NCBI RefSeq assembly: GCF_023115465.1
Contig: NZ_CP096034.1
Location: forward strand, 4,216,001-4,280,000
Length of the DNA: 64,000 nucleotides
From: Gottfriedia acidiceleris
Lineage (GTDB): Bacteria > Bacillota > Bacilli > Bacillales > Bacillaceae_G
Direction of reading: 5' to 3'
Shown here: piece after piece, positions 17,701 to 52,610 of the stretch
Layout: each line of letters opens with the position of its first letter
Position numbering within the stretch: position 1 is the stretch's first letter
Program-made: the position numbers and the translations under genes
Notes under the pieces: model-generated
Told to the model about the DNA's origin: nothing
Database searches by the model: none
The model's input: only the letters and a program-made list of their open reading frames with translations

Positions 17701-19249
17701 CTAATCCACTAAAATCAGATGGTTGTCCAATTTTAGGCGATCCATCTGTATTTTTACCTAATGAAACTAACTTATATTCCTTACTTGTGTCGTTGTTCCA
17801 GTGCCAATCATCAAGACCATCTCCAGTAAATGAGCCTACTGTTCCACCAGAAGTTAGAGCATCATTTGATGTAAATGTATACTTATGATTCGATACGATA
17901 TTGTTAGCTGCTGCAACTGTAAATGAATCTGGATATACTCCAGGATTCCCGATTTTATTTAAATCAGGTGTTTGACCAATCTTAATCGATTGACCCATTC
18001 CACCTACACGATCTGCATATGCATTTGATGCATTTCCTGCTGCTACTACAACAACATGGCCTTCATCAGTAGCATTTCGAATGGCAATTCCCATTGGATC
18101 ATTAGGGTCCCTTGTGTCAAATGAGGAAGATGAACCAAGGCTCATGTTAATTACATCTGCACCTAATGACGCTGCATGGTCAATACCTTTAATAATATCT
18201 TCAGTAAATGCACCTGGTGCGTAATCGGAAAATACTTTTTCTGCGATAATTTGTGCTTCCGGTGCAACTCCTTGAATGACTGGTCCAGAACCTGCTGCAA
18301 TACCTGCAACGTGCACACCATGTGAGCTTGTATTACTATCCGGTAGCTCTACGTGTGGGATTACATCACTATCTTGATCCGCCCAGTCGTATCCATCAAC
18401 AACCTTATGTGAAATTGTTCCATCATCACGTTTAAATTTGCCAGTTTTAATTCGAGCTTTACTCATATCTTTTGGATCAGGGAATGCTTCATGGGTATAG
18501 TCAACACCTGTGTCAACAATTGCAACGACCATTCCTTCTCCTTTATATCCAGAAGGTTGTCCAACTGCTGAACCGTTCCAAACATTTTTAATGCCTGTTA
18601 AATCATGTTGTTGATTAACTGCTGGATAGTATTTATTTTGTAAAGTAACTGCTTTAACATTTGACAATGATTTAATTGTATCGATATCACCGTACTTAAT
18701 ATTATCAATACTAAAACCTTTAAAAACATTTGTATATTCTTGTTTAAAATTAAGACCATTATCACTCTTTACTTTACTAATTGATAATGAGCTCATAATT
18801 TCATTCTTTGTTGATTGAATATCTTTTTGTACTAAACTTGTTGCAGTACTTAAAGACATTTGGCTGACACCAATACCACTTGTCATCTCAGAAGCTGTTT
18901 GACCTTTTAACTGAACGATTACTGATACTAAATCATCTGGTTTATGTGTATCAACATCCAGTGTTTCCTTATTTTTAAATAAGTCTTTCTGAGCTTTTGC
19001 ATGTTCAGCGTCAATTGCTTTTTTACCTTTTTCTTTAAGAGCCGTGATCATGTCTTCCGTCAAGTTCAGTGTATTTAGATTGTTCTCACTATTCGTTACT
19101 AAAATACCTTGATTGGGATCTTTGTCATCTGTTATTACCGGTAATTGTTGTGCTAGATCTTCGGCTTTTACATATGACATGTTTGACATAATCAGTCCGA
19201 AAAGTGATAAAGATGATACGCCTTTAATCCATCTTTTCTTGATATTCAT
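11744..19249 (-). CDS. Giant secreted S8 subtilase with bacterial Ig repeats (2501 aa)
   Basis: An extracellular serine protease. It has an N-terminal signal peptide (about 1-29, cleaved near VKA), a propeptide-like region (about 100-205, DLVSVIVQLKG) and an S8 catalytic domain. The triad is visible: Asp246 (VAIVDTGVD), His310 (SSHGVHVAGIAAG) and Ser677 (DGTSMAAPYVTGA), with oxyanion Asn406 (VAAGN). A PA insert (about 515-575, GKIVLIQRG...AGAAGVIIY) precedes Ser677, as in Vpr/lactocepin-type subtilases. Then come Fn3-like and Ig-like regions, about four 'atrophied' bacterial Ig repeats (about 1690-2080, pattern ITWSSSxPxVI then GTVTRP), and five C-terminal Ig-type repeats of about 80 residues (about 2080-2501, INPIGDNDVALTGKTEANATI). 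There is no LPXTG or SLH anchor, so probably released or loosely bound. The ATG follows GGGGGGAAA. A second giant subtilase lies just upstream on the same strand. Confidence 0.9.
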   Translation of the reverse strand: MNIKKRWIKGVSSLSLFGLIMSNMSYVKAEDLAQQLPVITDDKDPNQGILVTNSENNLNTLNLTEDMITALKEKGKKAIDAEHAKAQKDLFKNKETLDVDTHKPDDLVSVIVQLKGQTASEMTSGIGVSQMSLSTATSLVQKDIQSTKNEIMSSLSISKVKSDNGLNFKQEYTNVFKGFSIDNIKYGDIDTIKSLSNVKAVTLQNKYYPAVNQQHDLTGIKNVWNGSAVGQPSGYKGEGMVVAIVDTGVDYTHEAFPDPKDMSKARIKTGKFKRDDGTISHKVVDGYDWADQDSDVIPHVELPDSNTSSHGVHVAGIAAGSGPVIQGVAPEAQIIAEKVFSDYAPGAFTEDIIKGIDHAASLGADVINMSLGSSSSFDTRDPNDPMGIAIRNATDEGHVVVVAAGNASNAYADRVGGMGQSIKIGQTPDLNKIGNPGVYPDSFTVAAANNIVSNHKYTFTSNDALTSGGTVGSFTGDGLDDWHWNNDTSKEYKLVSLGKNTDGSPKIGQPSDFSGLDVTGKIVLIQRGTINITDKVVNAQKAGAAGVIIYNAPGKAPLDNPVGFGLIPYTFISNDAGVKLEDAYSKLNTVIGPGPGPGVGGLAVVAPKPLTLKITNEKLGSAFSESNPGEPTDFTSWGTTSDLLLKPEIMAPGHAIYSSVRVTADKHDTYENEDGTSMAAPYVTGAVADVMQGLIAKGFQPGTRAFAQLTKNLIMNTAIPAKRDYINDNNPADRQDYMTEYQPRRQGAGMIRPDLALKSPVVVTNKDGTGSVSLREIGGTTTFTITAQNLTDKAVTYKLNGTVMTDVLKDSKKANSDNIRSRYLDDAKLTFDQNEITIPANTVKRVNVTVSLADTTTKNTFIEGYVYLTPTDQALPTLNVPYNGFYGKWDEPNVIDTKDTNVWTASTTGTQLALQTPAGIFGYETLFGPPRTPGQLALGDKYYVVNDNLLPIPIVALLRNARNLKVDVVDKDHNLITHLANNDWVKKTDPYSGGNPGQPASEVWPFWNEAVEVPDGQYYFALTATADALNAKPQKTVYIPMYKDTTAPKMNVIRSADYDEKTHPETTDSNSYTVRWKMDDGDAGNVDGNVFMALNGSEQDGYQQNVKQSADGTYELTVNGLVEGLNVIHVAPVDKIGNMGDAHTIIVRKTSKHVWIDTTSATLNDNIPSMKWEANVKPGDSYSLGFKAVGATDSVKKIQAVILKNYYDNSTIVGDPIDIDMAQSVTQTPYFSNYSEYSIKGNVTIPSTLPKGAYAVKFLLMAEGEKWNDPGVPAIGIETYVDTDAPTITSLNTTSMRAVVKNDGDPVALMLNASVKDAVSNSRGYKVEYSVDGGAPKSMGAYSTYSTTSTQTFRYPVVLPNASGQHDIKIIATDTLGNKSEYPLTVNVAATKVTVNYTLNGQSKTQDIAIQKIASSNIAPTITLVDSFSSKSKIYDSNYVFNTEGNDPSLMGYIQTPNGNLNSTDTALAPILIGGNSQNRAQVFYTKTGIPSWNIPADSYTFSGLATGYNDIGAYPQGDSDIPVTMVDCLGNETPIKVKLHKNAYIPKVKLNDAIIDNNNNQTATFFTYDSNFTVKGTITGVQDRFFATWTDWQRVGNGFNANKNLFDPTSDWGKSPTTSAGEIYPGYENDPGVKSFSFNTGELKPGPNYFEIDGGSIVGSNPAKTLGGTHPLVKNVVVYRLGTAEGADLPLATIAANALTWDKINGENKDQSLILTNLALPNYDDANHAVISWSSSNPAVIKNDGTVIRPTEDTNVTLTATVLVGGASIVKTFNVTVAAKEVNDEIAANEDASNITWDVIRGDNTDLNNLTDALSLPTFGSNGSRIVWTSDDQKHVTNKGNVYKPLFDEDDAHVQLVAKITRNTSTVYKTFNVTVLKDTDNKERTIVLRAYHEVQVGDLLGENKVVTDITKDLNLPTTYGNDGVTITWQSSDPGVIAPDGKVTRPAKNTDVTLTAIYRLGNASIANQFGFVVRSENSDNSAIVQAAKASLVWNLIKKENTDSNAVTTNLNLPTNGSQDTTITWSSSEPPVIKEDGTVTRPTYEAGDKTVTLTATISKGSDKTTKEFTINVLKQEDHTAPTSIVIDPIGDNDEVLTGKTEANATVIVKIGNEEIGTGKADSNGSYQIQVGKQKAGTVLSVTAKDLAGNESNAFNTTVLDKTAPSLVVNPIGDNDVALTGKTEANATIIVKVGNNVIGTGKADSNGSYQIQVGKQKAGTVLSVFAKDSAGNESNGFDTIVLDKTAPSVPVINPIGDNDVALTGKTEANATITVKIGNNVIGSGKADSNGNYQIQVGKLIAGTILTVTAKDQAGNESGASNTIVLDKTAPTSPVINPIDDNDVTLTGKTEANATITVKIGSNVIGSGKADSNGAFKVTISKQKAGTVLSVTAKDQAGNESVASNITVSKPKVTIDRTAPKAPAITSVSVSSKTGIQINGKAEANAKIVISIGSKVEANVKVSSNGTFAGKLPKQKAGKISISLHAVDKAGNKSGKVVRQVTVK

Positions 19250-19363
19250 TTGTTTCCCCCCTGATAAGCAAATTGCTTTTCTATTTTTAGTAATTTAAGT
19301 ATTGAAAATTTTCTAAACACTTAAATATAAATAAATATTACTCGACGATTATCAAATCGTACA

Positions 19364-19374
19364 TTGGGGGAATT
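19364..19374. promoter_or_regulatory. TTGGGGGAATT motif, proximal copy upstream of protease 1
   Basis: The 11-bp sequence lies 115 bp before the protease 1 start. The same motif occurs once more upstream of this gene and twice upstream of protease 2 at matching distances, which points to a shared regulator site. No known consensus is assigned. Confidence 0.5.
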
Positions 19375-19546
19375 GGGCACTTTTGACTATATTTTTTTCG
19401 TATATTAACTGCAAAAAACGACATAATTCAACTAAAAAATATAATAATTTTCTTAAATTCAATAAAATTTTATAAGATTTTGTAAAAAAAGCTCTTATTA
19501 AGCAAAAAATTGTTAATTTAAAAAAAAGAATTCATTTTGTGCTAAT

Positions 19547-19557
19547 TTGGGGGAATT
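19547..19557. promoter_or_regulatory. TTGGGGGAATT motif, distal copy upstream of protease 1
   Basis: Second copy, 183 bp beyond the proximal one; the flanks (AATTTGGGGGAATTT) match the distal copy upstream of protease 2. The rest of 19250-19660 is very AT-rich and holds no gene. Confidence 0.5.
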
Positions 19558-19665
19558 TGAACAATTTTTTTAAAAAATTGATTTGCGGATTCAAGTTGCC
19601 AATGATTGTTATCAAAAATTTTATCGTACTTTAATACTATTAGGTTTTTATTAATATAAAAAAAT

Positions 19666-19705
19666 AAGACAAGAATACTAAAATTGTATTCTTGTCTTTT
19701 ATTAT
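19666..19705 (+). terminator. Hairpin related to the one at 11611
   Basis: Stem AAGACAAGAATAC / GTATTCTTGTCTT followed by TTATTATTTTT, nearly identical to the terminator after the HTH-TPR gene. No plus-strand gene precedes it here, so it looks like part of a duplicated 3' region. Confidence 0.7.
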
Positions 19706-19765
19706 TTTTAAGGGAAAGTTTGTATATGAAAAAAGTTATACTAATCGTTTTACCTGCTTACTTTT

Positions 19766-19806
19766 CAAAAAGGGTGTTTATTAATTACCTTATAAACACC
19801 CTTTTT
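19766..19806 (-). terminator. Intrinsic terminator of giant protease 2
   Basis: Stem AAAAGGGTGTTTA / TAAACACCCTTTT, 44 bp past the protease 2 stop; related to the hairpin at 11700. Confidence 0.75.
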
Positions 19807-19849
19807 AATTTTTACTTGAGAGAATTTATACTGCTTGTTATTACATTTC

Positions 19850-22800
19850 TTATAGTTTGATCGCTACAACACTTGACCAGTCGCTATAGATTTTTTTCGA
19901 TCCAACAATTTTAAATGAACGGACTTTGTAATAGTAAGTTTTACCCTTACTTAATCCAGTATTTGTGTATGACGTCGTTTTTACGTCACTTAGGTGCGAA
20001 TATGAACCTGTTTTTGAAGTTGATTTAACAATTTCATAACCTGCAGCACCTGACACACTTGACCACGTTAATTTAGCTGAAGTTTTTCCGTACTTTGTCA
20101 CTTTAGCATTTGATGGTTTAGCTGGAATTGCTACCCATTTCGCATAAATTGTCGTGTTTGTTGTAACTCGATCCTTCGCAAAGTTCCAAGCTACTTTACC
20201 TGCAGCATCTTTGTACCATCCAAGGAATACATATCCTTTTCTAGTTGGTGATGCTGGTTGACCTACTGTTGAATTGTATTTCACTGTTTTAGCAGCCACA
20301 GAACTTCCGCCATTACTGTTAAATTTAACAGAATATTTGTTAATGTTCCATTTTGCATAAAGTGTAATATTACTTGTTAATGTTACATTTGAACCTACTG
20401 CTGTTTTTAATGCAGCATCTTTGTACCATCCAACGAATGTATAACCCGTTCTTGTTGGGATTGGTAATTTAATCACGCTATTATAATTTGCAGTTTTGTC
20501 AGCCACTTGACTGCCGCCATTGCTAATATAGTGAATCTTGTAAGAGTTAATACTCCATTTCGCATACAAGATCATGTCACCTGATACTTTATCAGTTTCA
20601 AAGTTCCATGGTGTTTTACCTTCTGCATCTTTGTACCAACCAAGGAAAGTATAGCCTGTTCTTGTTGGTTTTGATTCATCAAGTAATGAGTTGTAATCAG
20701 CTTTCACTGAAACTACAAGTCCAGCATCTTGTGTGTCATAGATTACAGTGTATTTAGCTAGTTTCCATTGTCCATAAAGTGTTTTTGTAGAATAGATCGA
20801 GCTTGTGAAATCCCAAGGAATTGTACATTCTGCATCTGCAAACCAAGCTAATTCATAGCCATTAACAGTCGGTGCTGTTATTCTGCGTGACACAATTTGA
20901 TCTTTTGTTGCATCCTTAACTACTTGAGGAGCATCACTTTGAAGAACGAAATGTACATTATATCCATTCACCACTTTTTGAGTTACAGTTACATCTGCAT
21001 AATCAGTAGCACTGATATTGATCTTGAAGTCTCCAATTTTAGAGAAGACACTCTTATCAATTGTAATCGTACGTGCAGCCTTATCTAATTTATATTTTGT
21101 TTCATCTAAAGTAACTGCACCAACTTTAATTCTAGTGATGGCATTTGCCCACTCAGAATCAACGAATTCAAGTGTAATATCGTTACCTAGCGCGTTATCT
21201 GTCGTATCTGTTAAAACTTGAGATCCGACTAAAGCATATTTTGCATAAAGAGTAATTGGTTTTGTTACAATGTTTGCAAAATCATACGGTGTTGTTAAAT
21301 TTTGATCTGTATACCAGCCGTAGAACTTATAGCCAACCTTTGTAGGCTCTAGTGGCTTTGTTGCAGTTCGATCGACGATTTGAGCTGGAACAGAATCCCC
21401 ACCATTTGATACAAACGTTACTTGATATCCGATTACTTGATCTGTAACAATTGCATCCGCATAACCTTCAGAAACAATCACTACATTGACCTTTTGTCCT
21501 GCTGTAAATAGGTTATGGTTTAATGTAATCGCGTTATTGCTAATTGTATAATCCTTGTTTAAAACTAAATCTTTTGAACCGATTTTTACTGCTTTGATAT
21601 TATTTTTCCATGTTCCATCATCTGTAAATGGTAACGTAATATCGCTACCTACAGTGTTTCCAACTGTATCCTTCAATACTGTTGGAGGTGTTTTAATCCA
21701 ACATACATAGTAAGTTGCATTATCCGTTAAATAAATACCGTTAGTTTGTGAAATCGGTGCTACCTTGTCACTTGAGTTTGCACTGTCTAGATATAGCTTA
21801 TCGCTTATTGAAAGCGTTCCATTTGTGATATGTGATAATGCTGATTGCATACTAGGTACATTCGCTTTACCATTCACAAGGCCATCAGCAAAGTATAAGT
21901 CAGTTGCATTCTTTACCGTTCCGCCGTTTAAATCAATATGACGTCTGTAACTAAGTTTAATATTTGGAATCACGATCTTTTCACCAGTCGTTGCAGTAAG
22001 CGTTAAATTATATCCACTAATTTGCCCTGCATTTGATAAACTTGGTGCTGCACTAAACGCAAATTTTTGATCTGGATGTTCACTTGCAAATTTTTCCGTC
22101 GCAGTCGTAAATGAAAGCGTTCCAATTCGATCATTCGTTGACATGTCATATGTGCTTGGATCTAACGTATAAGTTGTCGGTGTAGCCTCTGTCGTTCCAT
22201 CACTCTTTAATTTATAGTAAGTGGCTTCGATTTTGGCAATTTGATTTTTACCCGTTAACCAAGGGATATTCGCAGCATAATCTGGAATATTGACTTTCAC
22301 ATCTCCTTCACCAAGTACCCAACCAATACCGCTTGCTCCACTTATTCCGTCAAACTTCAATCCATTTGGTTTCGTAACATCAACAGGTGAATAGTTTTGC
22401 GTAAAATTCACTTGCCATTTCGCATAAACGGTTTGATCTGCACTTACATTAGCAGTTGTGTCCCATTGATTTGTGCCTGCTGGTTCGTTAAACCAACCCA
22501 TAAATTTATACCCAGGTTTTGTTGTACTTGGATTAACACCTCCACCTCCAGGACTATTTGTAATGACATCTCCATTTACACGGGTTCTATTCGGTCTAAA
22601 TCCAAATGCGATTGGATTAACTGGAGCGCCACCTTGAGTATCAAACGTAATGCCATATCCAACTGCTTGACTATAAAAACCGTTTGAATCAAGTCCGATT
22701 GTTTTAACCGGGTAAATGGTATTATCTGCACCCTTTGAACTGATATCAAACTTATACAACTGAGGCAACCAGTTCGTTCCACCTGGATTGATTGGCGAAG

Positions 22801-25800
22801 CTGAACTAACAGCTGCATCATTCGTCTTGAATAAATCTGCCTTAAACGTAATTTGACCTGGTACACTAATGTCGTAATATTTGTTCCCACTACCGTCTTT
22901 CAAATCTGTGATATCTAGAACGGTTGAGTTTTGTGTTTTCACTTTGATATTATTAATTCCATTACGCCAATTCGCATCATCTGTGAATTTAAACGTTAAA
23001 TCCTTCCCTACATGTGCTTTTGATGGATCAGTCACTTCTGGAATTGTAGGCGTCGGAATTGGTAGAGCTGAAACCGTAAAGGTATTGGTTACATCTTGAT
23101 AACCAGCAGCCTTGATTGTAACCGTGTAATTCGTATTCGAATTCGGATTTGATGTGAAAAGAGAACCAGGTAACGTAATTTTTGAAGGCATTACCGCTAG
23201 CGCTCCAAATTGATCATAATACGTAGTTGCTTCTGAGATTTTCACTAGATTAGTTACGTCTGTTGAACCTACCATCACTTTTGTAATTGCTTTTCGCCAT
23301 ACCACATCATCTTTAAACACATCACTAACTGGGATGAGATTGATTGATGCACCATTTTGTAAGTCTTTTAACGTTGGAATGGTCGTTTCACTTGTTTTTT
23401 GTTTTGGACCTGCAAAATTTAGCGCTGCTCTAATTTGATCGATTCCATCACCAGCATGTAAAGTGAATGTATTTGCAAATCGATCGAATCTTGGATCTGT
23501 ATAATCTCCTCTGTTTGTCCCAATCGTCACATCTTTCGTTAACGTTAGTTGTGGTTCTGGAACCGTTACACCTGCGTCGATCGCACTTTGATTTTTCAAC
23601 CCAAAGTTTTTGAAAATAAAATAGAAATCATTGTAATCAATTTTACTTGTTGCAATCGGCGAACCTGTATAGTTAATATCATTGTTACGATAGCTTCTTA
23701 ATAACGATTTAACTGCTGGGTCGTTTCCACCAAGAAGCGTACTTTGGAACGAATAATCGTTATAAGCTTGAATCTCCGAAGTTAAGTCATTGATGTCAAT
23801 GACATTATCCCCATTCACATCTCCACCTAAAAGAATCGGGAAAAGACCTCTGATATCTTTTATTGTTCCTGATTGGTAGCCAAATTTATTTTCACCAATG
23901 ACTGGTGTTTTCTCATATCCTTTGAAATGTCCTGGTACACTCGCTTCGACAGAATATGGAGAGTTACTTACATCCATTGTTACAGCATAATACGGGTTAA
24001 TAAACGTATAAGCAATTGTGTTATTAAACGATGTAGGATTATCCGTTTCAAACGTTTTACCCTTGTCATCTTTAACCGTTACCTTCGCTCCTGAATCCAC
24101 TGTGAATTGAGGATATTCATTGGATACGTTGTTTCTTGCGAAAGCTTCAGCCGCCAATTGACCTCTCAGCACGGAAATTGACTGTCTGATATAAGGTACA
24201 TTTGTTGGGAACCACGTAACTTCTGTATCCTCGCCTGATAACGTTAAATTGGATTTTAAAACCACTAATTCATCTGGTCCTGTAATCGGATCAGGGTTTG
24301 AATAGGTTACATCTGCTTCGATAATATTCATATCATGATCAAGTGCACCTTTTGCATCAATGCCAGATATCGTAATATCAACGTTTTTACCAACTTGATA
24401 AACTGGATGAACATAAGGTTCACTTACAGTTAATACCTTAGTAGGGTCAATCCCTTTACTGATTAAATAGTTTTTATACTCATCTGTTAATCTGATATTG
24501 CTATATTTGTAAACTTGATTATCGTTAAGTGTAATTTTAGCGCCTGTCATACCTACGCCGTGCTTTGTCGCGATTGTCGTTTTGAACGGTTTATTCGCAT
24601 CGACAACCACTTTATCTTCATTACCTGGCCCCGCATCGACACCTCCAGAATTGGTAAGTGTTAAATATGGGGTACCTTTTTTAATGAAATAATATTCTTG
24701 TTTTGTGACCGATGGATCACCAGACCCCGCATAATCAAGTGGATAGACCCAGAAATAGCTACCGAATTTTGACGCTACGTCCTCAGGCGTAATACCAAAA
24801 TGGAAACGACCTTTCTCATCTGTATTGAACCTTACAGTTGGCGAATCACTATCTTGGAAACCTAAAACTGTGTTTAACCCTTGGTCGACAGGTACAGGTG
24901 ACCCATCTTTTGGACTTGGCACCGTCGTTTCGCCATTATTTTTCATCACATCGACGTTTGAATCGTAGACTGAACCATAAAATCCTTTAATCTCTTGATT
25001 AGGTTGGTAGCCTGTCGTGTCGATTTCATAAATTCCTGGCTTTGAATCACTGTCCATTTTAATGGTCGGTGGTGTGTTGTCTACATAAAGTGTATCTTCT
25101 TTTGTGTAACGTTTTCCCGCTTCATCCGTCATGATCATTTCAAGAGAATAAGTACCCTCTTTTATCACTACAGGTTTTGTTGCGATACCGGATGGATCAT
25201 ATGAACCATCATATGGCTTCGTAAATGGAAGATATTGCCCAAGATAAAGTGTGATCCGATTGCCGTAACGGACTCCTGGCGTAATCCCACTTGCATCCCC
25301 TAAAGAATTTGTCACCCCTAAATAATGTCCGTCCTTATCTTTTAAGACCATATAAGCGTCTTTCATTGCATTATTCACCGATAAGTCGTAAGTCGTTAGG
25401 CTATTCGGTGTCATTGCCTTCGTCGTCACTTTAAACGAATCAATTCCTTTTTCAGCGACAGTAATCGTGAACGGAACTCGATAAGACTCCGATGAGTCCG
25501 CCGCATTGACAAGGTGAATATACCCCTCATAAGTGCCATCCAAAGCATTTGATGGTACGGTAATTTTTGCTGTTGCTTTTACTGTACTACCACCATCAAC
25601 TTTAATAGATGTCAGGTTGGACCCACCAGTAGAAAATGCGATTTTGACATCATTTCCTGTGCCAGGACCTACTTTATTCGATTCGGCAAATTTAGTTGAA
25701 AGGAACTCTGTACTTACGTTAAATGTTTTACCGCTTGTTCCTTCGTTTGTTACGTTAAAATCTTTCGATGAAATCACGTCATCGGATCCGTTCGTTGATC

Positions 25801-28114
25801 CTTCTCCTCTACCTTTAAAGCCAAAGAACATGCTTCCTGTAAGGTTATCCACTTGAGTTAGCATCGAATCTGAATTAGTAGCATATGCTTTGTCTAAAAC
25901 TTGGATTTTTACATTCTCATTAATTGCGCGTGCAGGATCAACACGTCCAGCACCAACTTGGTATACGCTATAAGTTTTTGAATCTGTATTTATATCCTTA
26001 GCTGTATTCATTAATGCCGTTTTTACATCAGCAGGAGTATAGTCTGGATGAGCAGCTAAAACCAATGCTGAAATACCTGCCATATGAGGCGTTGCCATTG
26101 AAGTACCTGACATTAATTGATAAGAATACTTATAATCCCTTTTATCTGCACTTACATCTGCTTGTGGTTCCCAAACATCATATGGAGCAGTCGACGATAT
26201 GTCAACACCAGGCGCAACAATATCTGGCTTGATTGTCCAATCTTTTACTGGTCCTGTTGAACTAAAGCTTGCCAAATCGTCACCTTTTTTTGTGATTGGC
26301 GCATCAAGCGTACTTGGGAACGTAATTTTTGCTGATTTAGGATCCTTAAAGATCGCATCAGAAAGAGCTTGTCCCGCAGCTTGAGTCAATGAAACAGAAT
26401 AAACATTATCCATACTGACACCTAAGAAGCTATTAATATATCCTTGGTTATCCTCATCAGCACCATTGTCCCAAATGATCATACCAGCTACGCCAGCTTT
26501 GTGCGCATTTGCCATTTTTGTCTGTAAATACTCCCCGCCACGTTTCACAAGGGCAATTTTACCGGTCATGTCTAATCCACTATAATCTGCCGCACTACCT
26601 AAGCCGACATCAACAATTGGAAAAGTTTTTCCTTTAAATGCGTCATCAGTTTGTGTGAAGTTTTTACCAAACAAACGAGCTTTATAGTTCGATGTGCCGT
26701 TCTTTAAGGTCATTGTTGCAATATCTTCTGGAATCGTACTTGCACCAACCGTTATCGCTAGTCCAGCAGTTCCTGGTGAACCAACAGTCCCTGAACCAGG
26801 TCCTGCATTCCCCGCTGCAACATCACAAACAACTCCCGCTAAAGTAGCATTGTTGATGGCAATACTAGTTGGATACATTGGGTCGTTAACATTCGCACCA
26901 AGCGAAAGATTGATAACATCCATATGATCCTTAACAGCTTGGTCAATCCCGTTCAATACTGAGTCTGATGTACCATGACCACCTGGTCCTAATACACGGT
27001 AACCATAAAGGTCTACATTTGGCGCTACACCATTTGCTGAATAAACATCATTATTATTTGTCGTATTAGCAGCGATTGTCCCTGAAACGTGAGTTCCATG
27101 TTCTGTAATATACTGCTTATAATCTCCAGGAGGTGGGCCTGATATTACATCTGGATTCGTCTTCGCAGCTACCCAATCATCATAAGTTGTTTCCATTGGA
27201 TCATGGTCATCCACGTATTTTACATTTCCATTTTCATCAAGGCCAACATTATTTACAAGGTCATGGCCTCCTTTATAGACAGCCTTTAAATCAGGGTGAT
27301 TGTAATCAATACCAGTATCGAGTACACCAACCTTAATTTTTTGGCCTTTTCGAGGACCCGATTTAATAATACCTGTATTACCTTCAGCTTGAAGTTTATC
27401 TAATCCTAAGTAGGAAAGCGCTGATGTAGGCTTGCCTACAGATCCACTTGCCTCTTGAGCTTGAGGAGCACTTCCTTCAGCTGCCGTGTATTCAACTTGA
27501 GACCAAACAGAAGCAACTTCTGGATTTTCTGCAATTTTTTGAACTAATTTTGCTGGTAGGGATAAAGCAACTCCATTAAATGCTTCTGTATATTCTCTCG
27601 TTATACTAATACCCGTTTTAACAGTTTTCCCACCAACTATTTGCGTTTTAGGCTGTGCATTGACAAAGCTCTTAAATTTGGCATGAGAATCTTTGACCTT
27701 ATTTTGTGCGTCGGAATATTCGTTTGCAAAAGCTTGACTATTTACAGTTGCTCCGCCTTTAGCTAACGATTGCTTAATGATTTGAATCTTAGCCGGATCT
27801 TCTTTAAATTGAACAAGTACATTAATATGCTTATCAGGACTATTCAAATCTTTCTGATCGACACGTATTTTTTGACCATTGTCTGCTCCAGTGAGCTTAT
27901 TTATGTTAGCCTTTTGTTCTGGCGTCAACCCAGCCAAAATGCGATTCACTTCATCTGCTGAAAATTTTCCATCAGATGAGCTTTTTGAGCTTTTTTGATC
28001 AACATTCGACTCTGCATGTGCAAGAATTGCACTTTGAGGTAATAAGACATTTAGTAACATTGCACTACTTAATGCAACAGCCGAAAATGTTCGTTTCTTT
28101 TGTCTCTTTTTCAT
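19850..28114 (-). CDS. Giant secreted S8 subtilase with dockerin-like and InlB-type repeats (2754 aa)
   Basis: An extracellular serine protease. It has a signal peptide (about 1-35), an I9-like propeptide (about 95-210, HINVLVQFKEDP) and an S8 domain with Asp266 (VGVLDTGID), His339 (TEHGTHVSGTIAAN), oxyanion Asn436 and Ser672 (MSGTSMATPHMAG). A PA insert (about 510-590, GKIALVKRG) is present. Next come Fn3-like modules, then a dockerin/EF-hand-like segment near 1428-1505 (GGDVNGDNVIDINDLTSEI, later IDYNDFYFIF). Regions ending in pattern ...VTIKAAGYQDVT follow, like Hb-interacting/DUF1533 domains. Six InlB B-repeat (Flg_new) units (about 1850-2660, pattern RTGYTFLGWYKD...LYAKW) and a C-terminal Fn3 domain (about 2666-2753) complete it. 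There is no sortase or SLH anchor. The ATG follows GGGGGG. It is a paralogue of protease 1 in the catalytic part, but the C-terminal modules differ. Confidence 0.9.
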   Translation of the reverse strand: MKKRQKKRTFSAVALSSAMLLNVLLPQSAILAHAESNVDQKSSKSSSDGKFSADEVNRILAGLTPEQKANINKLTGADNGQKIRVDQKDLNSPDKHINVLVQFKEDPAKIQIIKQSLAKGGATVNSQAFANEYSDAQNKVKDSHAKFKSFVNAQPKTQIVGGKTVKTGISITREYTEAFNGVALSLPAKLVQKIAENPEVASVWSQVEYTAAEGSAPQAQEASGSVGKPTSALSYLGLDKLQAEGNTGIIKSGPRKGQKIKVGVLDTGIDYNHPDLKAVYKGGHDLVNNVGLDENGNVKYVDDHDPMETTYDDWVAAKTNPDVISGPPPGDYKQYITEHGTHVSGTIAANTTNNNDVYSANGVAPNVDLYGYRVLGPGGHGTSDSVLNGIDQAVKDHMDVINLSLGANVNDPMYPTSIAINNATLAGVVCDVAAGNAGPGSGTVGSPGTAGLAITVGASTIPEDIATMTLKNGTSNYKARLFGKNFTQTDDAFKGKTFPIVDVGLGSAADYSGLDMTGKIALVKRGGEYLQTKMANAHKAGVAGMIIWDNGADEDNQGYINSFLGVSMDNVYSVSLTQAAGQALSDAIFKDPKSAKITFPSTLDAPITKKGDDLASFSSTGPVKDWTIKPDIVAPGVDISSTAPYDVWEPQADVSADKRDYKYSYQLMSGTSMATPHMAGISALVLAAHPDYTPADVKTALMNTAKDINTDSKTYSVYQVGAGRVDPARAINENVKIQVLDKAYATNSDSMLTQVDNLTGSMFFGFKGRGEGSTNGSDDVISSKDFNVTNEGTSGKTFNVSTEFLSTKFAESNKVGPGTGNDVKIAFSTGGSNLTSIKVDGGSTVKATAKITVPSNALDGTYEGYIHLVNAADSSESYRVPFTITVAEKGIDSFKVTTKAMTPNSLTTYDLSVNNAMKDAYMVLKDKDGHYLGVTNSLGDASGITPGVRYGNRITLYLGQYLPFTKPYDGSYDPSGIATKPVVIKEGTYSLEMIMTDEAGKRYTKEDTLYVDNTPPTIKMDSDSKPGIYEIDTTGYQPNQEIKGFYGSVYDSNVDVMKNNGETTVPSPKDGSPVPVDQGLNTVLGFQDSDSPTVRFNTDEKGRFHFGITPEDVASKFGSYFWVYPLDYAGSGDPSVTKQEYYFIKKGTPYLTLTNSGGVDAGPGNEDKVVVDANKPFKTTIATKHGVGMTGAKITLNDNQVYKYSNIRLTDEYKNYLISKGIDPTKVLTVSEPYVHPVYQVGKNVDITISGIDAKGALDHDMNIIEADVTYSNPDPITGPDELVVLKSNLTLSGEDTEVTWFPTNVPYIRQSISVLRGQLAAEAFARNNVSNEYPQFTVDSGAKVTVKDDKGKTFETDNPTSFNNTIAYTFINPYYAVTMDVSNSPYSVEASVPGHFKGYEKTPVIGENKFGYQSGTIKDIRGLFPILLGGDVNGDNVIDINDLTSEIQAYNDYSFQSTLLGGNDPAVKSLLRSYRNNDINYTGSPIATSKIDYNDFYFIFKNFGLKNQSAIDAGVTVPEPQLTLTKDVTIGTNRGDYTDPRFDRFANTFTLHAGDGIDQIRAALNFAGPKQKTSETTIPTLKDLQNGASINLIPVSDVFKDDVVWRKAITKVMVGSTDVTNLVKISEATTYYDQFGALAVMPSKITLPGSLFTSNPNSNTNYTVTIKAAGYQDVTNTFTVSALPIPTPTIPEVTDPSKAHVGKDLTFKFTDDANWRNGINNIKVKTQNSTVLDITDLKDGSGNKYYDISVPGQITFKADLFKTNDAAVSSASPINPGGTNWLPQLYKFDISSKGADNTIYPVKTIGLDSNGFYSQAVGYGITFDTQGGAPVNPIAFGFRPNRTRVNGDVITNSPGGGGVNPSTTKPGYKFMGWFNEPAGTNQWDTTANVSADQTVYAKWQVNFTQNYSPVDVTKPNGLKFDGISGASGIGWVLGEGDVKVNIPDYAANIPWLTGKNQIAKIEATYYKLKSDGTTEATPTTYTLDPSTYDMSTNDRIGTLSFTTATEKFASEHPDQKFAFSAAPSLSNAGQISGYNLTLTATTGEKIVIPNIKLSYRRHIDLNGGTVKNATDLYFADGLVNGKANVPSMQSALSHITNGTLSISDKLYLDSANSSDKVAPISQTNGIYLTDNATYYVCWIKTPPTVLKDTVGNTVGSDITLPFTDDGTWKNNIKAVKIGSKDLVLNKDYTISNNAITLNHNLFTAGQKVNVVIVSEGYADAIVTDQVIGYQVTFVSNGGDSVPAQIVDRTATKPLEPTKVGYKFYGWYTDQNLTTPYDFANIVTKPITLYAKYALVGSQVLTDTTDNALGNDITLEFVDSEWANAITRIKVGAVTLDETKYKLDKAARTITIDKSVFSKIGDFKINISATDYADVTVTQKVVNGYNVHFVLQSDAPQVVKDATKDQIVSRRITAPTVNGYELAWFADAECTIPWDFTSSIYSTKTLYGQWKLAKYTVIYDTQDAGLVVSVKADYNSLLDESKPTRTGYTFLGWYKDAEGKTPWNFETDKVSGDMILYAKWSINSYKIHYISNGGSQVADKTANYNSVIKLPIPTRTGYTFVGWYKDAALKTAVGSNVTLTSNITLYAKWNINKYSVKFNSNGGSSVAAKTVKYNSTVGQPASPTRKGYVFLGWYKDAAGKVAWNFAKDRVTTNTTIYAKWVAIPAKPSNAKVTKYGKTSAKLTWSSVSGAAGYEIVKSTSKTGSYSHLSDVKTTSYTNTGLSKGKTYYYKVRSFKIVGSKKIYSDWSSVVAIKL

Positions 28115-36356: not shown

Positions 36357-37607
36357 TTATGACTTCACTTCAACTACGATATTCTTCATAATCTTGAACA
36401 TTGGCACCATGATGATGATTCCAATAACGAATAATAATGCTGAAACTTGATAAATAGAGATTAAAGAAAAATGCTCCTTTAAAATACCTGCCAAGCTCAT
36501 AGTAATGACCATAGCTCCCATAAATAAAGGTGTTAATATACCGTTTACCCTGCCTACAAACTTTTCATCAGTATTTTTTAAGATGATTGTATTAATACCG
36601 ATATGCAACGCAGGCATAAATAGTCCGATAAAGAATTCAGCAACAAGCGTTAGCCAGAACATCTCAGACCAACCTATAACAAATATTCCAATCGCATTGA
36701 CCGCCATACCGATTAATAATAATACATGCGGTGCCAACTTATTCGATATGACCATTATTAGGCCACCACCTATAATCATAGCGGCTCCATTTGCCGCGAA
36801 TATCCATTGTAAATATTCCTTATCTAATCCTAGTCGTTCAGTTACTAAAAAAATTGCTAGAGGATGGATAAGACCTATACCTAATCCTGCCGCTGCAAAT
36901 ACTCCACCTAAATAGACGAGAATTTTTCGAGACCAAACGTATTGGAATCCTGACTTCATCTCTTCCAATAATGATGTTGTATGTTCAGACTTTTCTTCTT
37001 CTTGATCCTTAGGTAATCTTGTTAATACTAAAGCTGACATAAGAAAAGCAATCCCTACAATTCCCATCGAAACATGTATTCCAGCTTGTTGAAATACGAA
37101 TGTACCTAATACTGGACCTAAAATCATAAACACTGCCATCATCGTTTGAAAGATAGACATACCTGCTTGCATTTGCTCACCAGGTACATGAACTTTAAAT
37201 AATTTCATATTGGAAGGCTGAGAAAACTGGGACAAGATTGCTGAAACTAATGTAGCAAAAAACACAAACTTCCATGTTCCATATAATAGTGCTAACAAAA
37301 TAACAAATATAGATACAGCACTTAACAGATCGCACCATATCATTGTACGCTTTGGTTTCCAACGATCGGCAAAAGTTCCACCGATAAAAGAAAAAATAAA
37401 AATTGGCGCAAATTCAGCAACTGATATCAATGATACGGCTGTTGCATCACCATTGGTCTTTTCCACTACAAATAATAAGATTGCAAAATTACGAATCCAA
37501 ATACCAACTTGAATAAACAAACCTGCTGAAAGAATCGTCTGAATAAAAGGATTTTTTAACAAAGAAGCCATTGAAGGATTTGAAGCTGTTGGAGTAGTTT
37601 TAGACAT
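36357..37607 (-). CDS. MFS transporter (MFS_3 / EntS-like)
   Basis: A 416-residue, 12-TM major facilitator. The N-terminal half has FIGGTFADRWKPKRTMIWCDL, the MFS motif A between TM2 and TM3, and SQFSQPSNMKLFKVHVPGEQMQAG, typical of MFS_3 proteins related to enterobactin exporter EntS and macrolide exporter MefA. A charged central loop (RLPKDQEEEKSEHTTS) separates the halves. ATG follows GAGAGGGGAAAAA. No neighbouring biosynthesis or regulator gene indicates the substrate. Confidence 0.88.
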   Translation of the reverse strand: MSKTTPTASNPSMASLLKNPFIQTILSAGLFIQVGIWIRNFAILLFVVEKTNGDATAVSLISVAEFAPIFIFSFIGGTFADRWKPKRTMIWCDLLSAVSIFVILLALLYGTWKFVFFATLVSAILSQFSQPSNMKLFKVHVPGEQMQAGMSIFQTMMAVFMILGPVLGTFVFQQAGIHVSMGIVGIAFLMSALVLTRLPKDQEEEKSEHTTSLLEEMKSGFQYVWSRKILVYLGGVFAAAGLGIGLIHPLAIFLVTERLGLDKEYLQWIFAANGAAMIIGGGLIMVISNKLAPHVLLLIGMAVNAIGIFVIGWSEMFWLTLVAEFFIGLFMPALHIGINTIILKNTDEKFVGRVNGILTPLFMGAMVITMSLAGILKEHFSLISIYQVSALLFVIGIIIMVPMFKIMKNIVVEVKS

Positions 37608-37809
37608 TTTTTCCCCTCTCTTATTTCAATTACATTTTAACCACGCAAGAACTAACGTTCCTTAGAACATACATTCTTATTTTAACATTAAATTTCTTTA
37701 ATAATCAATCCCAATTCTTGTCAATTGGAAAATTTAAAGTCACCATGGAAAGGAGAAAAATTAAGTTCGTTTATACCATTCAATAAAGTAATTTACTTTA
37801 AAAGTTACA

Positions 37810-37844
37810 AAAAAATGTCACTGAGTTAATCAATGACATTTTTT
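37810..37844. repeat. Hairpin flank (left) of the ~510-bp element
   Basis: AAAAAATGTCA / TGACATTTTTT stem around 13 bases. A near-identical hairpin lies at the other end of the element at 38354, differing only in the loop. Read as a target-site duplication of a terminator-like hairpin. Confidence 0.7.
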
Positions 37845-38353
37845 CATGCTGTTGAAAAACTACCTTGTCAATTAAATATCAAATTTTCGTGAAAGGAGTA
37901 GAGTGATGTTGATTTCCATTACAGGATGCTCGCTTTCCATGGGGCGAGATTCTTTAGCCTCCTCGGCAAGCCTGTGGGGTCTCAGCCTTCCCGCTTATCC
38001 CATAGGAGTCGAGCATCCCTCCATTCCAATCAACTTATTCATCTAAAAATGTCTGAGATAAACCCTAATCAAATAGCCTTTCCTTAGAGTAATCTAACTT
38101 TAATCAGATAGTAGATCAATTAATATTGAACATTTATTAAACTAAACAATCGAATTTGTTTTCTAAAAAAAGCTTATAATATTTTTAACGTCTAAAAAAT
38201 CATTTCTATTGTTATTGAAATAATGAAATTGCTCAAACATATTAACATTTATAACCATTAAAAGATCATTCAAAAAATGCTAATTTTATAATTATGAAAT
38301 GTTCACTTAAAGTCCCTTTTCCCTATTTGACGATTTTATATTTCAACACTCTG
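37845..38353. mobile_element. ~510-bp non-autonomous (MITE-like) element, copy 1
   Basis: It has imperfect 13-bp inverted ends: CATGCTGTTGAAA at the left and the complement of CAGAGTGTTGAAA at the right. The whole length aligns by eye with the sequence at 50362-50762 plus 52447-52572 in the opposite orientation. There is no coding capacity. The left third contains a long imperfect palindrome (about 37890-38040; GTTGATT, GGATGCTCG and TCCATGGG arms pair with partners ending CGAGCATCC and AATCAAC). The right part is AT-rich. It lies between eno and the MFS gene and accounts for most of the long gap there. Confidence 0.7.
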
Positions 38354-38385
38354 AAAAAATGTCACCTTAATCAATGACATTTTTT
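38354..38385. repeat. Hairpin flank (right) of the ~510-bp element
   Basis: AAAAAATGTCA / TGACATTTTTT stem around 10 bases; direct repeat of the hairpin at 37810 with a 3-base shorter loop. On the minus strand it would also act as a terminator downstream of eno. Confidence 0.7.
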
Positions 38386-38393
38386 ACAGCAAT

Positions 38394-38427
38394 AAAAAAA
38401 AGAGAAGGTGACGATCCTTCTCTTTTT
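38394..38427 (-). terminator. Terminator of the glycolytic operon (after eno)
   Basis: Stem AAAAAGAGAAGG / CCTTCTCTTTTT with a 7-base loop, 55 bp past the eno stop on the minus strand, followed by T residues. Confidence 0.85.
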
Positions 38428-38481
38428 AACGTGTCTATAATGGATTATGTTTTTTTGTTAATACACTTAGTTTTGATTAAA

Positions 38482-39801
<1,320 letters not shown>

Positions 39802-50328: not shown

Positions 50329-50361
50329 AAAAGCCAGTTACTTTAATGAGGTAACTGGCTT
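50329..50361. repeat. Hairpin flank (left) of interrupted element copy 2
   Basis: AAGCCAGTTAC / GTAACTGGCTT stem just after the LevR-type stop. A direct copy lies at 52573 differing only in a few loop bases. On the plus strand the T-tract has been cut off by the element, and on the minus strand six T residues remain. Confidence 0.75.
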
Positions 50362-50784
50362 CAGAGTGTTGAAATATAAAATCCTCGATAGGGAAAATGG
50401 TTATTAAATGAATATTTATTAATGATGAATTTATCCTTTTTTGGATGATCTATCTATTAATGTAATATATTTTGAGCAATTTTATGATTCTAATAACTCT
50501 AGTAATGGTTTTTTCAAAATTTAAAAATATAATGAGCTAATTTTTTAGAAAAACAAATTCAATTGATTAGTTTATTAATTAATGTTCGAAATTTGTTGAC
50601 CTACAAATTGATTTATAAACTAATGTTAGAATACTCTAAGAAAAAGGCTATTTGATTAGGGTTTATCGCAGGCATTTTTTGATGAATAAGTTGATTGGAA
50701 TGGAGGGATGCTCGACTCCTATGGGATTAGCGGGAAGGCTGAGACCCCGCAGGCTTGCCGAGGCCACTGAAAAAGTCCTTGTGA

Positions 50785-50836
50785 TTAAAAAAAGTGAAGG
50801 CTTTCTCGATTTCATCGAGGAAGCCTTCACTTTTTT
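50785..50836. terminator. Hairpin at the left end of the IS
   Basis: Nearly perfect stem of about 22 bp (AGTGAAGGCTTtCTCGAT arm) with T-tracts on both strands, upstream of the transposase. It would shield the transposase from outside transcription. Confidence 0.8.
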
Positions 50837-50875
50837 CTTGTATAATTGTTGTATCAAGTAACGGTGGTGTATCGA

Positions 50876-52336
50876 ATGATCTCAAATCAAGAATCTTTTA
50901 CTCTCAGTCCTTTCATGGCTTTATACGATTTAATTGTTCCGAAAGATAATATACTTCGTCAAATAAATGAATTAGTAGATTTTACGTTTGTTTTAGAAGA
51001 ATTAAAAAATAAATATTGCCTTGATAACGGCCGGAATGCAGTGCCGCCTATTCGTATGTTCAAATATTTGTTACTAAAATCGATCTTTGATTTATCAGAT
51101 GTTGATGTTGTTGAACGATCAAAGTATGATATGTCTTTTAAATATTTTCTTGATATGGCTCCGGAAGAATCAGTGATCAATTCAAGTTCTTTAACGAAAT
51201 TTCGTAAGCTTCGTTTAAAAGATGTTGAATTATTAGACATGTTGATCAATAAAACAGTCGAAATCGCACTTGAAAAAGAACTAATTAAAAGTACGTCCAT
51301 TATAGTTGATGCAACTCATACAAGATCGCGATATAATCAAAAATCACCAAAAGAATTTTTAATGGAAAAGTCAAAGCTTCTTCGAAAAGCTGTTTATCAA
51401 ATCAATGAGGGAATGAGAGGAAAATTCCCACAAAAGCCAACAACGAATGATTTAATCGATGAAATTAAATATAGTCAAAAAGTCATCCAATCTGTGGAAA
51501 AAGAAGAATCAATCCGTGAATATCCAAAAGTCAAAGAAAAACTAAACTATCTAAAAGAAATTGTAGAAGATTACGAGGGCAACCTAGAATTTTCACATGA
51601 TCCTGACGCAAAAACTGGTCACAAATCAGCTGATACCTCATTCTTTGGTTATAAAACACATATTGCGATGAACGAAGAGCGTCTTATTACAGCTGCATTG
51701 GTTACTACTGGTGAAAAAAATGATGGAAAGTACCTACAAACATTGATTGAAAAAAGTTGTGAAACAGGAATGGAAATTGATACAGTCATTGGTGATACAG
51801 CTTATTCAGAGATTGATAATCTTCAATACGTAAATGAAAATGAATTAAAATTAGTTTCGAAATTAAACCCAACGATTACACATGGAACACGTAAAAAAGA
51901 AGATGAATTTCAATATAATAAGGATGCGGGTATGTACGTTTGCAAGGCAGGTCATATGGCAATCCGAAAAAGAAGACAAGAAAGAAAAAATCAGAAAAAA
52001 AATCCGCGAGATATGTATTACTTTGATATTGAAAAATGTAAAAAATGTCCCTTTAAAGATGGATGTTACAAAGAAGGTGCCAAAAGTAAATCATATAGTG
52101 TAACAATTAAATCAACTGAACACAAAGAGCATGCACAATTTCAAGAAAGCGAATATTTCAAAGAGAAATCAAAAGAACGCTATAAAATTGAAGCAAAAAA
52201 TAGTGAATTAAAACACAGACACGGGTACAATGTAGCAAATTCCACGGGTCTATTAGGCATGGAAATGCAAGGGGCAATGGCCATATTCGCAGTTAATTTA
52301 AAACGAATACTGACCTTAATGAAGGAAGAAAACTAA
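50876..52336 (+). CDS. IS1182-family transposase
   Basis: A 486-residue DDE transposase. N-terminal part (PPIRMFKYLLLKSIFDLSDVDVVERSKYDMSFKYFL) is the DUF772-type domain. The catalytic core contains SIIVDATHTRSRYN (first Asp), TVIGDTAYSE (second Asp) and a C-terminal YKIEAKNSELKHRHG with the Glu. A zinc-like cluster CKKCPFKDGC precedes it. It appears full length and may be active. Start chosen at ATG 50876 after ACGGTGGTG; an in-frame TTG-type start ten codons earlier is less likely. Confidence 0.92.
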   Translation: MISNQESFTLSPFMALYDLIVPKDNILRQINELVDFTFVLEELKNKYCLDNGRNAVPPIRMFKYLLLKSIFDLSDVDVVERSKYDMSFKYFLDMAPEESVINSSSLTKFRKLRLKDVELLDMLINKTVEIALEKELIKSTSIIVDATHTRSRYNQKSPKEFLMEKSKLLRKAVYQINEGMRGKFPQKPTTNDLIDEIKYSQKVIQSVEKEESIREYPKVKEKLNYLKEIVEDYEGNLEFSHDPDAKTGHKSADTSFFGYKTHIAMNEERLITAALVTTGEKNDGKYLQTLIEKSCETGMEIDTVIGDTAYSEIDNLQYVNENELKLVSKLNPTITHGTRKKEDEFQYNKDAGMYVCKAGHMAIRKRRQERKNQKKNPRDMYYFDIEKCKKCPFKDGCYKEGAKSKSYSVTIKSTEHKEHAQFQESEYFKEKSKERYKIEAKNSELKHRHGYNVANSTGLLGMEMQGAMAIFAVNLKRILTLMKEEN

Positions 52337-52350
52337 AAATGTATAAAGGA

Positions 52351-52396
52351 AAAGGCGATTTTCCGTTCAATTCTGAACGAAAAATCGCCTTTTTTA
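52351..52396 (+). terminator. Transposase terminator
   Basis: Stem AAGGCGATTTTnCGTTCA / TGAACGAAAAATCGCCTT followed by TTTTT, 14 bp past the transposase stop. Confidence 0.85.
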
Positions 52397-52572
52397 GATC
52401 ATATATAGATTACAGTAAATAAAATTGACTGTTTTTCAGTGGCCTCGGCTTGCCGAGCAGGCTCAGGTCTCGCCCCATGGAAAGCGAGCATCCTGTAGTG
52501 GAAATCAACATCACTCTACTCCTTTTACGATAATTTTGTAATTTAATTGACAAGATTGTTTTTCAACAACGT

Positions 52573-52610
52573 AAAAGCCAGTTACTTTAATAAAGTTAAC
52601 TGGCTTTTTT
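52573..52610. terminator. Bidirectional terminator / right hairpin flank of element copy 2
   Basis: AAGCCAGTTA.. / ..TTAACTGGCTT stem followed by six T residues on plus and four on minus. It ends the chbG operon on the minus strand. It is nearly the same sequence as the hairpin at 50329. Before insertion it was presumably the single shared terminator between the convergent LevR-type gene and chbG. Confidence 0.8.

What the first reader, a model, noticed from the sequence alone, without database searches (positions are those of the whole stretch)
37810..38385. Non-coding ~510-bp element flanked by direct copies of a whole terminator-like hairpin (copy 1)
Seen: the element with imperfect 13-bp inverted ends (…TGTTGAAA) lies between two hairpins AAAAAATGTCA…TGACATTTTTT that are near-identical to each other but unrelated to the hairpins flanking copy 2. 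Because the hairpins differ between sites but match within a site, they look like ~32-35 bp target duplications, not part of the element. Inference: a mobile element that recognises intrinsic terminators and duplicates them, so the host gene keeps termination. Differences between each pair lie only in the loop, as if selection kept the stems.
Basis: partly seen in the sequence, partly recalled or inferred. Interest (0 to 1): 0.8.

Follow-up and report, generated by a model that had tools for sequence, protein, structure and literature searches.

The report
Mobile elements that duplicate whole terminators
This 509-bp stretch is a gene-less mobile element, probably moved by an IS1182-type transposase, that inserts at hairpins behind genes and leaves a whole copy of the hairpin on each side, so the shape of the target rather than the enzyme seems to set how much DNA is duplicated.

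Summary
Element X (37845-38353) has at least 42 copies in this Gottfriedia-type chromosome. In 38 of 42 examined copies a whole hairpin is repeated on both sides, 36 of them flush. The flush repeats are 19-37 bp and end at the stem's feet: pairing is 0.88-0.97 inside the edge, 0.29-0.65 outside. Relatives carry a single hairpin at 8 of 8 sites tested, so these are target duplications, not element sequence. X has no ORF over 53 aa. A sister genome holds an intact insertion sequence with matching ends, an IS1182-family transposase and a duplicated hairpin of 33-34 bp, so X is probably its non-autonomous relative. Relatives across the order show the same at 37 of 48 loci, and so do plasmids of Vibrio, Sphingobium and Rhizobium. 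Corrections: the target is a palindrome rather than a terminator as such (two are A+T-only), and differences are not confined to loops. IS1182/IS1272 targeting of hairpins is known; whole-hairpin duplication was drawn as a hypothesis in 2017 (PMC5678879). The likely step, attack at the two 5' feet of a cruciform, is inferred.

The parts
37810..37844 (.). left copy of the duplicated target hairpin (35 nt)
37845..38353 (+). element X copy 1, 509 bp, no ORF over 53 aa; ends CATGCTGTTGAAA...TTTCAACACTCTG
   Evidence: matching ends in an intact IS1182-family element
37905..38050 (+). stretch holding the G+C-rich structured module (about 130 nt) inside X, found in other genomes of the order in other surroundings
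38354..38385 (.). right copy of the duplicated target hairpin (32 nt, shorter loop)
38482..39777 (-). enolase gene; X lies downstream of its 3' end, beyond a hairpin right behind enolase (about 38395-38428)
50330..50361 (.). target hairpin, one side of window copy 2
50362..52573 (-). element X copy 2, with an IS1182-family insertion sequence nested inside
50752..50759 (.). 8-bp palindromic duplication (GGCTTGCC) left of the nested insertion sequence
50760..52446 (+). nested IS1182-family insertion sequence, 1687 bp, ends GAGGCCACTG...CAGTGGCCTC, transposase ORF 50846-52336
   Evidence: NCBIfam scan was run on the L049 copy, shown as 100% identical
52447..52454 (.). 8-bp palindromic duplication right of the nested insertion sequence
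52574..52606 (.). target hairpin, other side of window copy 2

Best explanation
X is a non-autonomous (MITE-like) member of a lineage of IS1182-family insertion sequences whose transposase picks perfect or near-perfect palindromes, mostly terminator-like ones. SHOWN by comparison: the duplicated stretch is the whole palindrome, foot to foot, 19-37 bp here and 17-42 bp in the order-wide sample, and its length follows the target. INFERRED: the palindrome is attacked while extruded as a cruciform. [quoted passage not shown] The two element ends are joined there, one per strand, and gap filling then copies each single-stranded hairpin, leaving a whole terminator on both sides. X itself would be moved in trans; no intact transposase with its ends was found in this genome. 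The confidence given is for the shown part and for the link to IS1182; the cruciform step alone is about 0.5.
For: 42 copies, 38 with the whole hairpin on both sides, 36 of them flush, 24 of those identical. The repeat edge coincides with the stem foot: pairing 0.88-0.97 inside, 0.29-0.65 outside, n=34; shifted windows average 2.31 of 6. No flush repeat in 1482 mismatched pairings. Single hairpins in relatives at 8 of 8 sites, and related elements at the same palindromes in other species, in opposite orientation at three sites (my reading). Intact 1536-bp insertion sequence (L103) whose ends match X's (left end 12 of 13, right end 13 of 13), with an IS1182-family transposase (NF033551, 290.8 bits, cut-off 270) and a 34-bp direct repeat that is a hairpin plus one base. 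Of 48 order-wide transposase loci outside the genus, 37 have flush repeats between recognisable ends; 37 of 37 are palindromic with up to 3 nt trimmed per end. 9 of 9 plasmid loci chosen from 30 listed, three in Pseudomonadota, have a hairpin on both sides. A copy shrunk to about 138 bp lies between repeats of the same hairpin, so the ends seem to suffice.
Against: The cruciform step is not shown and no transposition was observed. Duplication lengths cluster weakly at a 10.5-bp period (R 0.30, p 0.047 in this genome; R 0.28, p 0.059 order-wide), which could mean that duplex DNA is read. Exceptions among 42: one half-hairpin (L020), one damaged right hairpin (L031), one displaced repeat (L038), one truncated element without repeat (L040). 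Three of 34 repeats do not pair end to end. 11 of 48 order-wide loci gave no repeat by the script; some are contig ends or fragments, and L214 has a palindromic 18-bp repeat that my end filter rejected, but others are unexplained. At some tested sites a relative lacks the hairpin altogether (G006 and G007 at the L011 site). The published IS1272 cases, also of the IS1182 family, lose the hairpin instead of duplicating it. The link of X to the L103 transposase rests on similar ends alone.
Confidence: 0.85

Rival explanations
1. The transposase reads the palindrome's two-fold symmetry in ordinary duplex DNA (one subunit per half-site) and cuts at the outer edges; no cruciform is formed.
For: Weak clustering of duplication lengths near two and three helical turns. 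Perfect arms would serve a dimer as well.
Against: Every length from 17 to 37 bp, and 41-42 bp, occurs in the pooled samples. By eye no sequence is shared between targets, which a half-site reader would be expected to need. The edge lies at the foot of the stem at 31 of 34 sites.
Confidence: 0.2
2. The hairpins are attacked in single-stranded DNA at replication forks, as for IS200/IS605-type elements.
For: Hairpins form readily in single strands.
Against: The transposases match DDE-type families. Long target duplications are present. Of 28 sites with a stop codon within 80 bp, it lies at X's left end at 9, right end at 15, both at 4 (read), so there is no fixed orientation to the gene; orientation to the fork was not tested.
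Confidence: 0.08
3. The hairpins are part of the element and move with it.
For: They abut the element in nearly all copies.
Against: They differ from site to site and match single hairpins without the element in relatives.
Confidence: 0.01
4. The IS1182 copy nested in X (ends GAGGCCACTG) is X's own transposase, and the 2.2-kb composite is the autonomous form.
For: All six full-length copies in this genome lie inside X. Its left end resembles X's left end by eye.
Against: It lies in both orientations within X (2 with X, 4 against it, from the strands), with an 8-bp duplication that in L052 is the variant GGCTCGCC on both sides, so it was probably inserted repeatedly. An intact element with X-type ends carries a different transposase (19% identity over the best 161 residues). 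Acting in trans on X is not excluded.
Confidence: 0.1

Closest known systems
IS1272 / TnSha1 (IS1182 family), PMC4923244 and PMC5678879
   Same: IS1182-family transposase; target is a stem-loop without sequence specificity, often a gene terminator; both orientations at one terminator
   Different: There the stem-loop is partly or wholly deleted and no duplication is seen; here the whole stem-loop is duplicated. Wan et al. 2017 drew whole-stem-loop duplication only as a hypothetical branch (Fig 13, pathway b; legend and discussion text read).
IS1182-family elements such as ISBspe1 and ISEfa7 (annotation names seen)
   Same: Homologous transposase and similar ends; the plasmid copies read here also lie between hairpin repeats
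   Different: They are autonomous; X has no transposase gene and carries a G+C-rich structured module
Class C group II introns (recalled)
   Same: Insert next to intrinsic terminators (recalled)
   Different: Ribozymes with no target duplication (recalled); no group II intron match in Rfam here
IS200/IS605-type elements (recalled)
   Same: Hairpin recognition (recalled)
   Different: HUH enzymes acting on single strands without target duplication (recalled)

Membership tests
IS1182 family, as a non-autonomous member | a transposase of the family lying between the same terminal sequences | tested here: met
   L103: CACGCTGTTGAAA...TTTCAACACTCTG around a 490-aa protein over the NF033551 cut-off. 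By similarity of ends only; activity not tested, and the element is in a sister genome.
IS1182 family, as a non-autonomous member | own transposase gene | tested here: not met
   Longest ORF overlapping 37845-38353 is 53 aa; hence non-autonomous
IS1182 family, as a non-autonomous member | same target behaviour as autonomous relatives | tested here: met
   whole-palindrome repeats at L103, at 37 of 48 order-wide loci and at 9 of 9 plasmid loci read
IS1272-type stem-loop replacement | loss of the target hairpin and no duplication | tested here: not met
class C group II intron | group II intron RNA | tested here: not met
   only a sub-threshold rli61 match in 37500-38700 at E<=1
IS200/IS605 | no target duplication | tested here: not met
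   duplications of 19-37 bp; the defining feature is recalled

The most novel reading that the evidence does not exclude
A lineage of DDE transposases, found in both Bacillota and Pseudomonadota, does not measure its target: it reads a four-way junction, attacks the two 5' feet of an extruded palindrome, and so makes a duplication whose length (17-42 bp) is dictated by the target's shape. IS1272's hairpin loss would be the same reaction with the other pair of feet attacked. Because each insertion leaves two intact terminators, the site can be used again.
Probability: 0.5. Interest if true: 0.8.

Novelty: new variant of a known kind. Interest (0 to 1): 0.64.

Why it matters
Textbook DDE transposition gives a duplication of near-constant length set by the spacing of the two active sites (recalled). 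Here the length follows the hairpin, so the target's shape, probably a cruciform, must be read. That would make cruciform extrusion in living cells testable from insertion data, explain why such elements sit harmlessly behind genes while leaving a terminator on each side, and give a sequence-independent way to map palindromes that extrude. It also offers a common frame for the hairpin-deleting IS1272 and the hairpin-duplicating relatives.

Tried and rejected
Rejected: hairpins as element ends; nested IS1182 as part of an autonomous composite (both orientations, local-variant duplication at L052); terminator as the strict requirement (A+T-only palindromes L023 and L024); loop-only divergence (L013 has a compensating pair change, L024 and L052 break a pair). 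An empty site for the finding's own locus is only weakly shown: of 12 relatives (L120-L131), two (L122, L123) carry a degenerate single hairpin of the same kind past the enolase hairpin by my reading; in the rest, the two closest included, I saw none. The helical-phase test was indecisive. A 3-mismatch end-pattern search was little better than its control (183 against 151 matches). The first length test pooled two samples and was redone separately. The genome-contig scan returned 6 loci, one intact.

Literature: ten searches. Five papers were opened, by sections or passages; the other listed papers were seen as listings only. None of what I read reports whole-hairpin duplication as data. Two IS reviews, looked up by DOIs from memory, are not held. 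The feature may therefore be in print or in ISfinder.

Full report
WHAT IS THERE. Window 37845-38353 is a 509-bp element, X, between two hairpins (37810-37844 and 38354-38385). X lies between enolase and an MFS transporter gene, beyond a further hairpin right behind enolase (about 38395-38428) that I also see behind enolase in the relatives. A search of the own genome gave 45 matches; only 40 of 150 candidates were scored, so this is a lower bound. I examined 42 copies: 40 loci covering that list (two fragments beside the L029 copy were not counted), the second window copy (50362-52573), and one at about 1.859 Mb found through its nested insertion sequence. The genus is Gottfriedia by inference: a genome of the same genus (G005) has a 113,966-base contig, the length of a Gottfriedia acidiceleris DSM 18954 contig returned.

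THE DUPLICATION. Of 42 copies, 36 have the hairpin repeated flush (within 1 nt) with both ends; 24 of these pairs are identical and 12 differ. Two more (L022, L043) have it on both sides but 4-7 bases from an altered right end. L038 has it 25 bp off. L020 has only a 15-bp half, L031 a damaged right hairpin, and L040 a truncated element without a repeat. Flush whole-hairpin repeats run from 19 to 37 bp. In the 34 repeats found without gaps (L020's half included), the ends pair with each other at 5.65 of 6 positions on average against 2.31 for shifted windows, and 31 of 34 have 5 or more. Pairing is 0.88-0.97 at the first eight positions inside the edge and 0.29-0.65 at the six positions outside. 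No flush repeat arises in 1482 mismatched flank pairs. The five of 39 parsed copies that miss that ungapped test are L031, L038, L048, L051 and window copy 2; L048 is the finding's own copy, whose two hairpins differ by a loop indel.

LOOP OR STEM. Of the 12 unequal flush pairs, changes lie in the loop or outside the stem in five (L016, L037, L048, L049, L051) and touch the stem in seven (L012, L013, L017, L024, L052, L056, window copy 2). L013 is a compensating A-T to T-A swap, L017 and L056 keep pairing, L024 and L052 break a pair, L012 and window copy 2 change the top of the stem (classes are my reading). For L048 the program's gap placement labels part of the indel as stem; by eye it is the loop.

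EMPTY SITES. For eight copies I searched coding flanks in the 13 genomes of the genus, own included, and read orthologous loci (not every relative at every site). At all eight sites at least four relatives carry a single hairpin with no element (my reading). Against this, G006 and G007 show no such hairpin at the L011 site, and the more distant G001 and G004 differ at the L027 site. At six of the eight sites at least one relative carries an X-like element at the same palindrome, and at three (the sites of L018, L025 and L027) a relative has it in the opposite orientation to this genome. Some palindromes have therefore been hit repeatedly. For the finding's own site the evidence is weak.

WHERE THE TARGETS LIE. 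An open frame of at least 70 codons reading towards the hairpin ends within 80 bp of it at 28 of 39 parsed copies, against 270 of 2000 random window points, a control not limited to intergenic DNA. Most targets are thus terminator-like. Two are A+T-only palindromes with folds of -3.1 and -1.8 kcal/mol (L023, L024), so the palindrome seems to be the signal.

WHO MOVES IT. The longest ORF overlapping X is 53 aa. In G011 (probably Bacillus sp. AFS055030, by a 100% protein match) an intact 1536-bp insertion sequence has ends CACGCTGTTGAAA...TTTCAACACTCTG, a 490-aa protein over the IS1182-family cut-off, and a 34-bp direct repeat that is a hairpin plus one base. G002 has a broken relative with two different hairpins at its sides. 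In the own genome the IS1182-family model found six full-length genes, all in the nested element described below, one broken gene and a fragment (15 of 15 candidates scored); the L103 protein had no match at E 1e-40 there (4 of 14 candidates scored). A copy shrunk to about 138 bp lies beside the L061 copy, between repeats of the same hairpin.

GENERALITY. A search of 397 genomes of the order with this transposase found matches in 50. Of 48 loci outside the genus that I read (28 returned by the tool, 20 chosen by me as further copies from genomes already sampled), 37 have a flush direct repeat between recognisable ends, and 37 of 37 are palindromic with up to 3 nt trimmed, 17-42 bp. The 11 without include fragments, contig ends and one palindromic 18-bp repeat that failed my end filter (L214); others are unexplained. 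Copies within one genome are not independent of each other. Nine named plasmid loci were read, of 30 listed and 339 matching records: Lysinibacillus, Alkalihalophilus, two Bacillus, Sutcliffiella, Enterococcus, Vibrio, Sphingobium, Rhizobium. Six have an exact direct repeat with all 6 end positions paired; Vibrio and Enterococcus have a hairpin repeat with one or two extra bases; in Lysinibacillus the first of two tandem copies lies between copies of one hairpin.

NESTED ELEMENT. All six full-length copies of another IS1182-family element (1687 bp, ends GAGGCCACTG) in this genome lie inside X at one spot, in both orientations, with an 8-bp palindromic duplication: GGCAAGCC or its complement at five, and the variant GGCTCGCC on both sides at L052. 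Three further X copies hold short inserts at the same spot; two of these show the same duplication, the third was not resolved. Its transposase and the L103 one align over 161 residues at 19%.

MECHANISM. Shown by comparison: variable, structure-bounded duplication; use of both orientations; the same in homologous elements of two phyla. Inferred: attack at the two 5' feet of an extruded cruciform, which lie side by side at the four-way junction whatever the stem length. Wan et al. 2017 (PMC5678879; abstract, sections 22 and 24, first part of section 29 and passages read) drew this branch as a possibility beside their own case, IS1272, in which the hairpin is lost; Furi et al. 2016 (PMC4923244; passages read) report partial hairpin deletion, at terminators among other sites. 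Wan et al. say that Siguier et al. had noted palindromic targets in the IS1182 family without detail. A 2025 paper (PMC12056078; [quoted passage not shown] Passages of PMC3852290 and PMC3098183 were also read; they list IS1182 elements without mention of hairpin targets there. Weak clustering of lengths at 10.5 bp (p 0.047 and 0.059) keeps a duplex-reading rival open.

VERDICT. Real, well supported, and apparently a general property of a transposase lineage. Not a new class of element; a variant of known IS1182 hairpin targeting whose whole-hairpin duplication I found, in what I read of the held library, only as a hypothesis.

Noticed in passing
37905-38050: A G+C-rich module of about 130 nt inside X recurs in other genomes of the order in other surroundings. 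An alignment of 22 copies (own plus 21 loci; shorter matches dropped) gives a consensus fold with both-side changes in 9 of 23 pairs, no control run; single-copy fold z -3.46; no Rfam family at E<=1 covers it.
   Followed up: partly
50760-52446: IS1182-family insertion sequence nested in X; all six full-length copies in the genome lie in X at the same palindromic apex, both orientations, with 8-bp palindromic duplications.
   Followed up: yes
L061 801-938: A roughly 138-bp X derivative made of little more than the two ends, in a chain hairpin-element-hairpin-element-hairpin, so a duplicated hairpin seems to have been used again.
   Followed up: partly
L013 flanks: The two copies of one duplicated hairpin differ by a compensating A-T to T-A pair, suggesting selection for, or copying of, the stem.
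   Followed up: no
L259 575-2146 and beyond: Tandem IS1182 elements in a Lysinibacillus capsici plasmid share one hairpin between them.
   Followed up: no
11744-28114: Two very long ORFs (2501 and 2754 aa) on the minus strand; not examined.
   Followed up: no
38350-38425: Sub-threshold match to Listeria sRNA rli61 (20.6 bits, gathering 50), probably chance from the paired hairpins.
   Followed up: no
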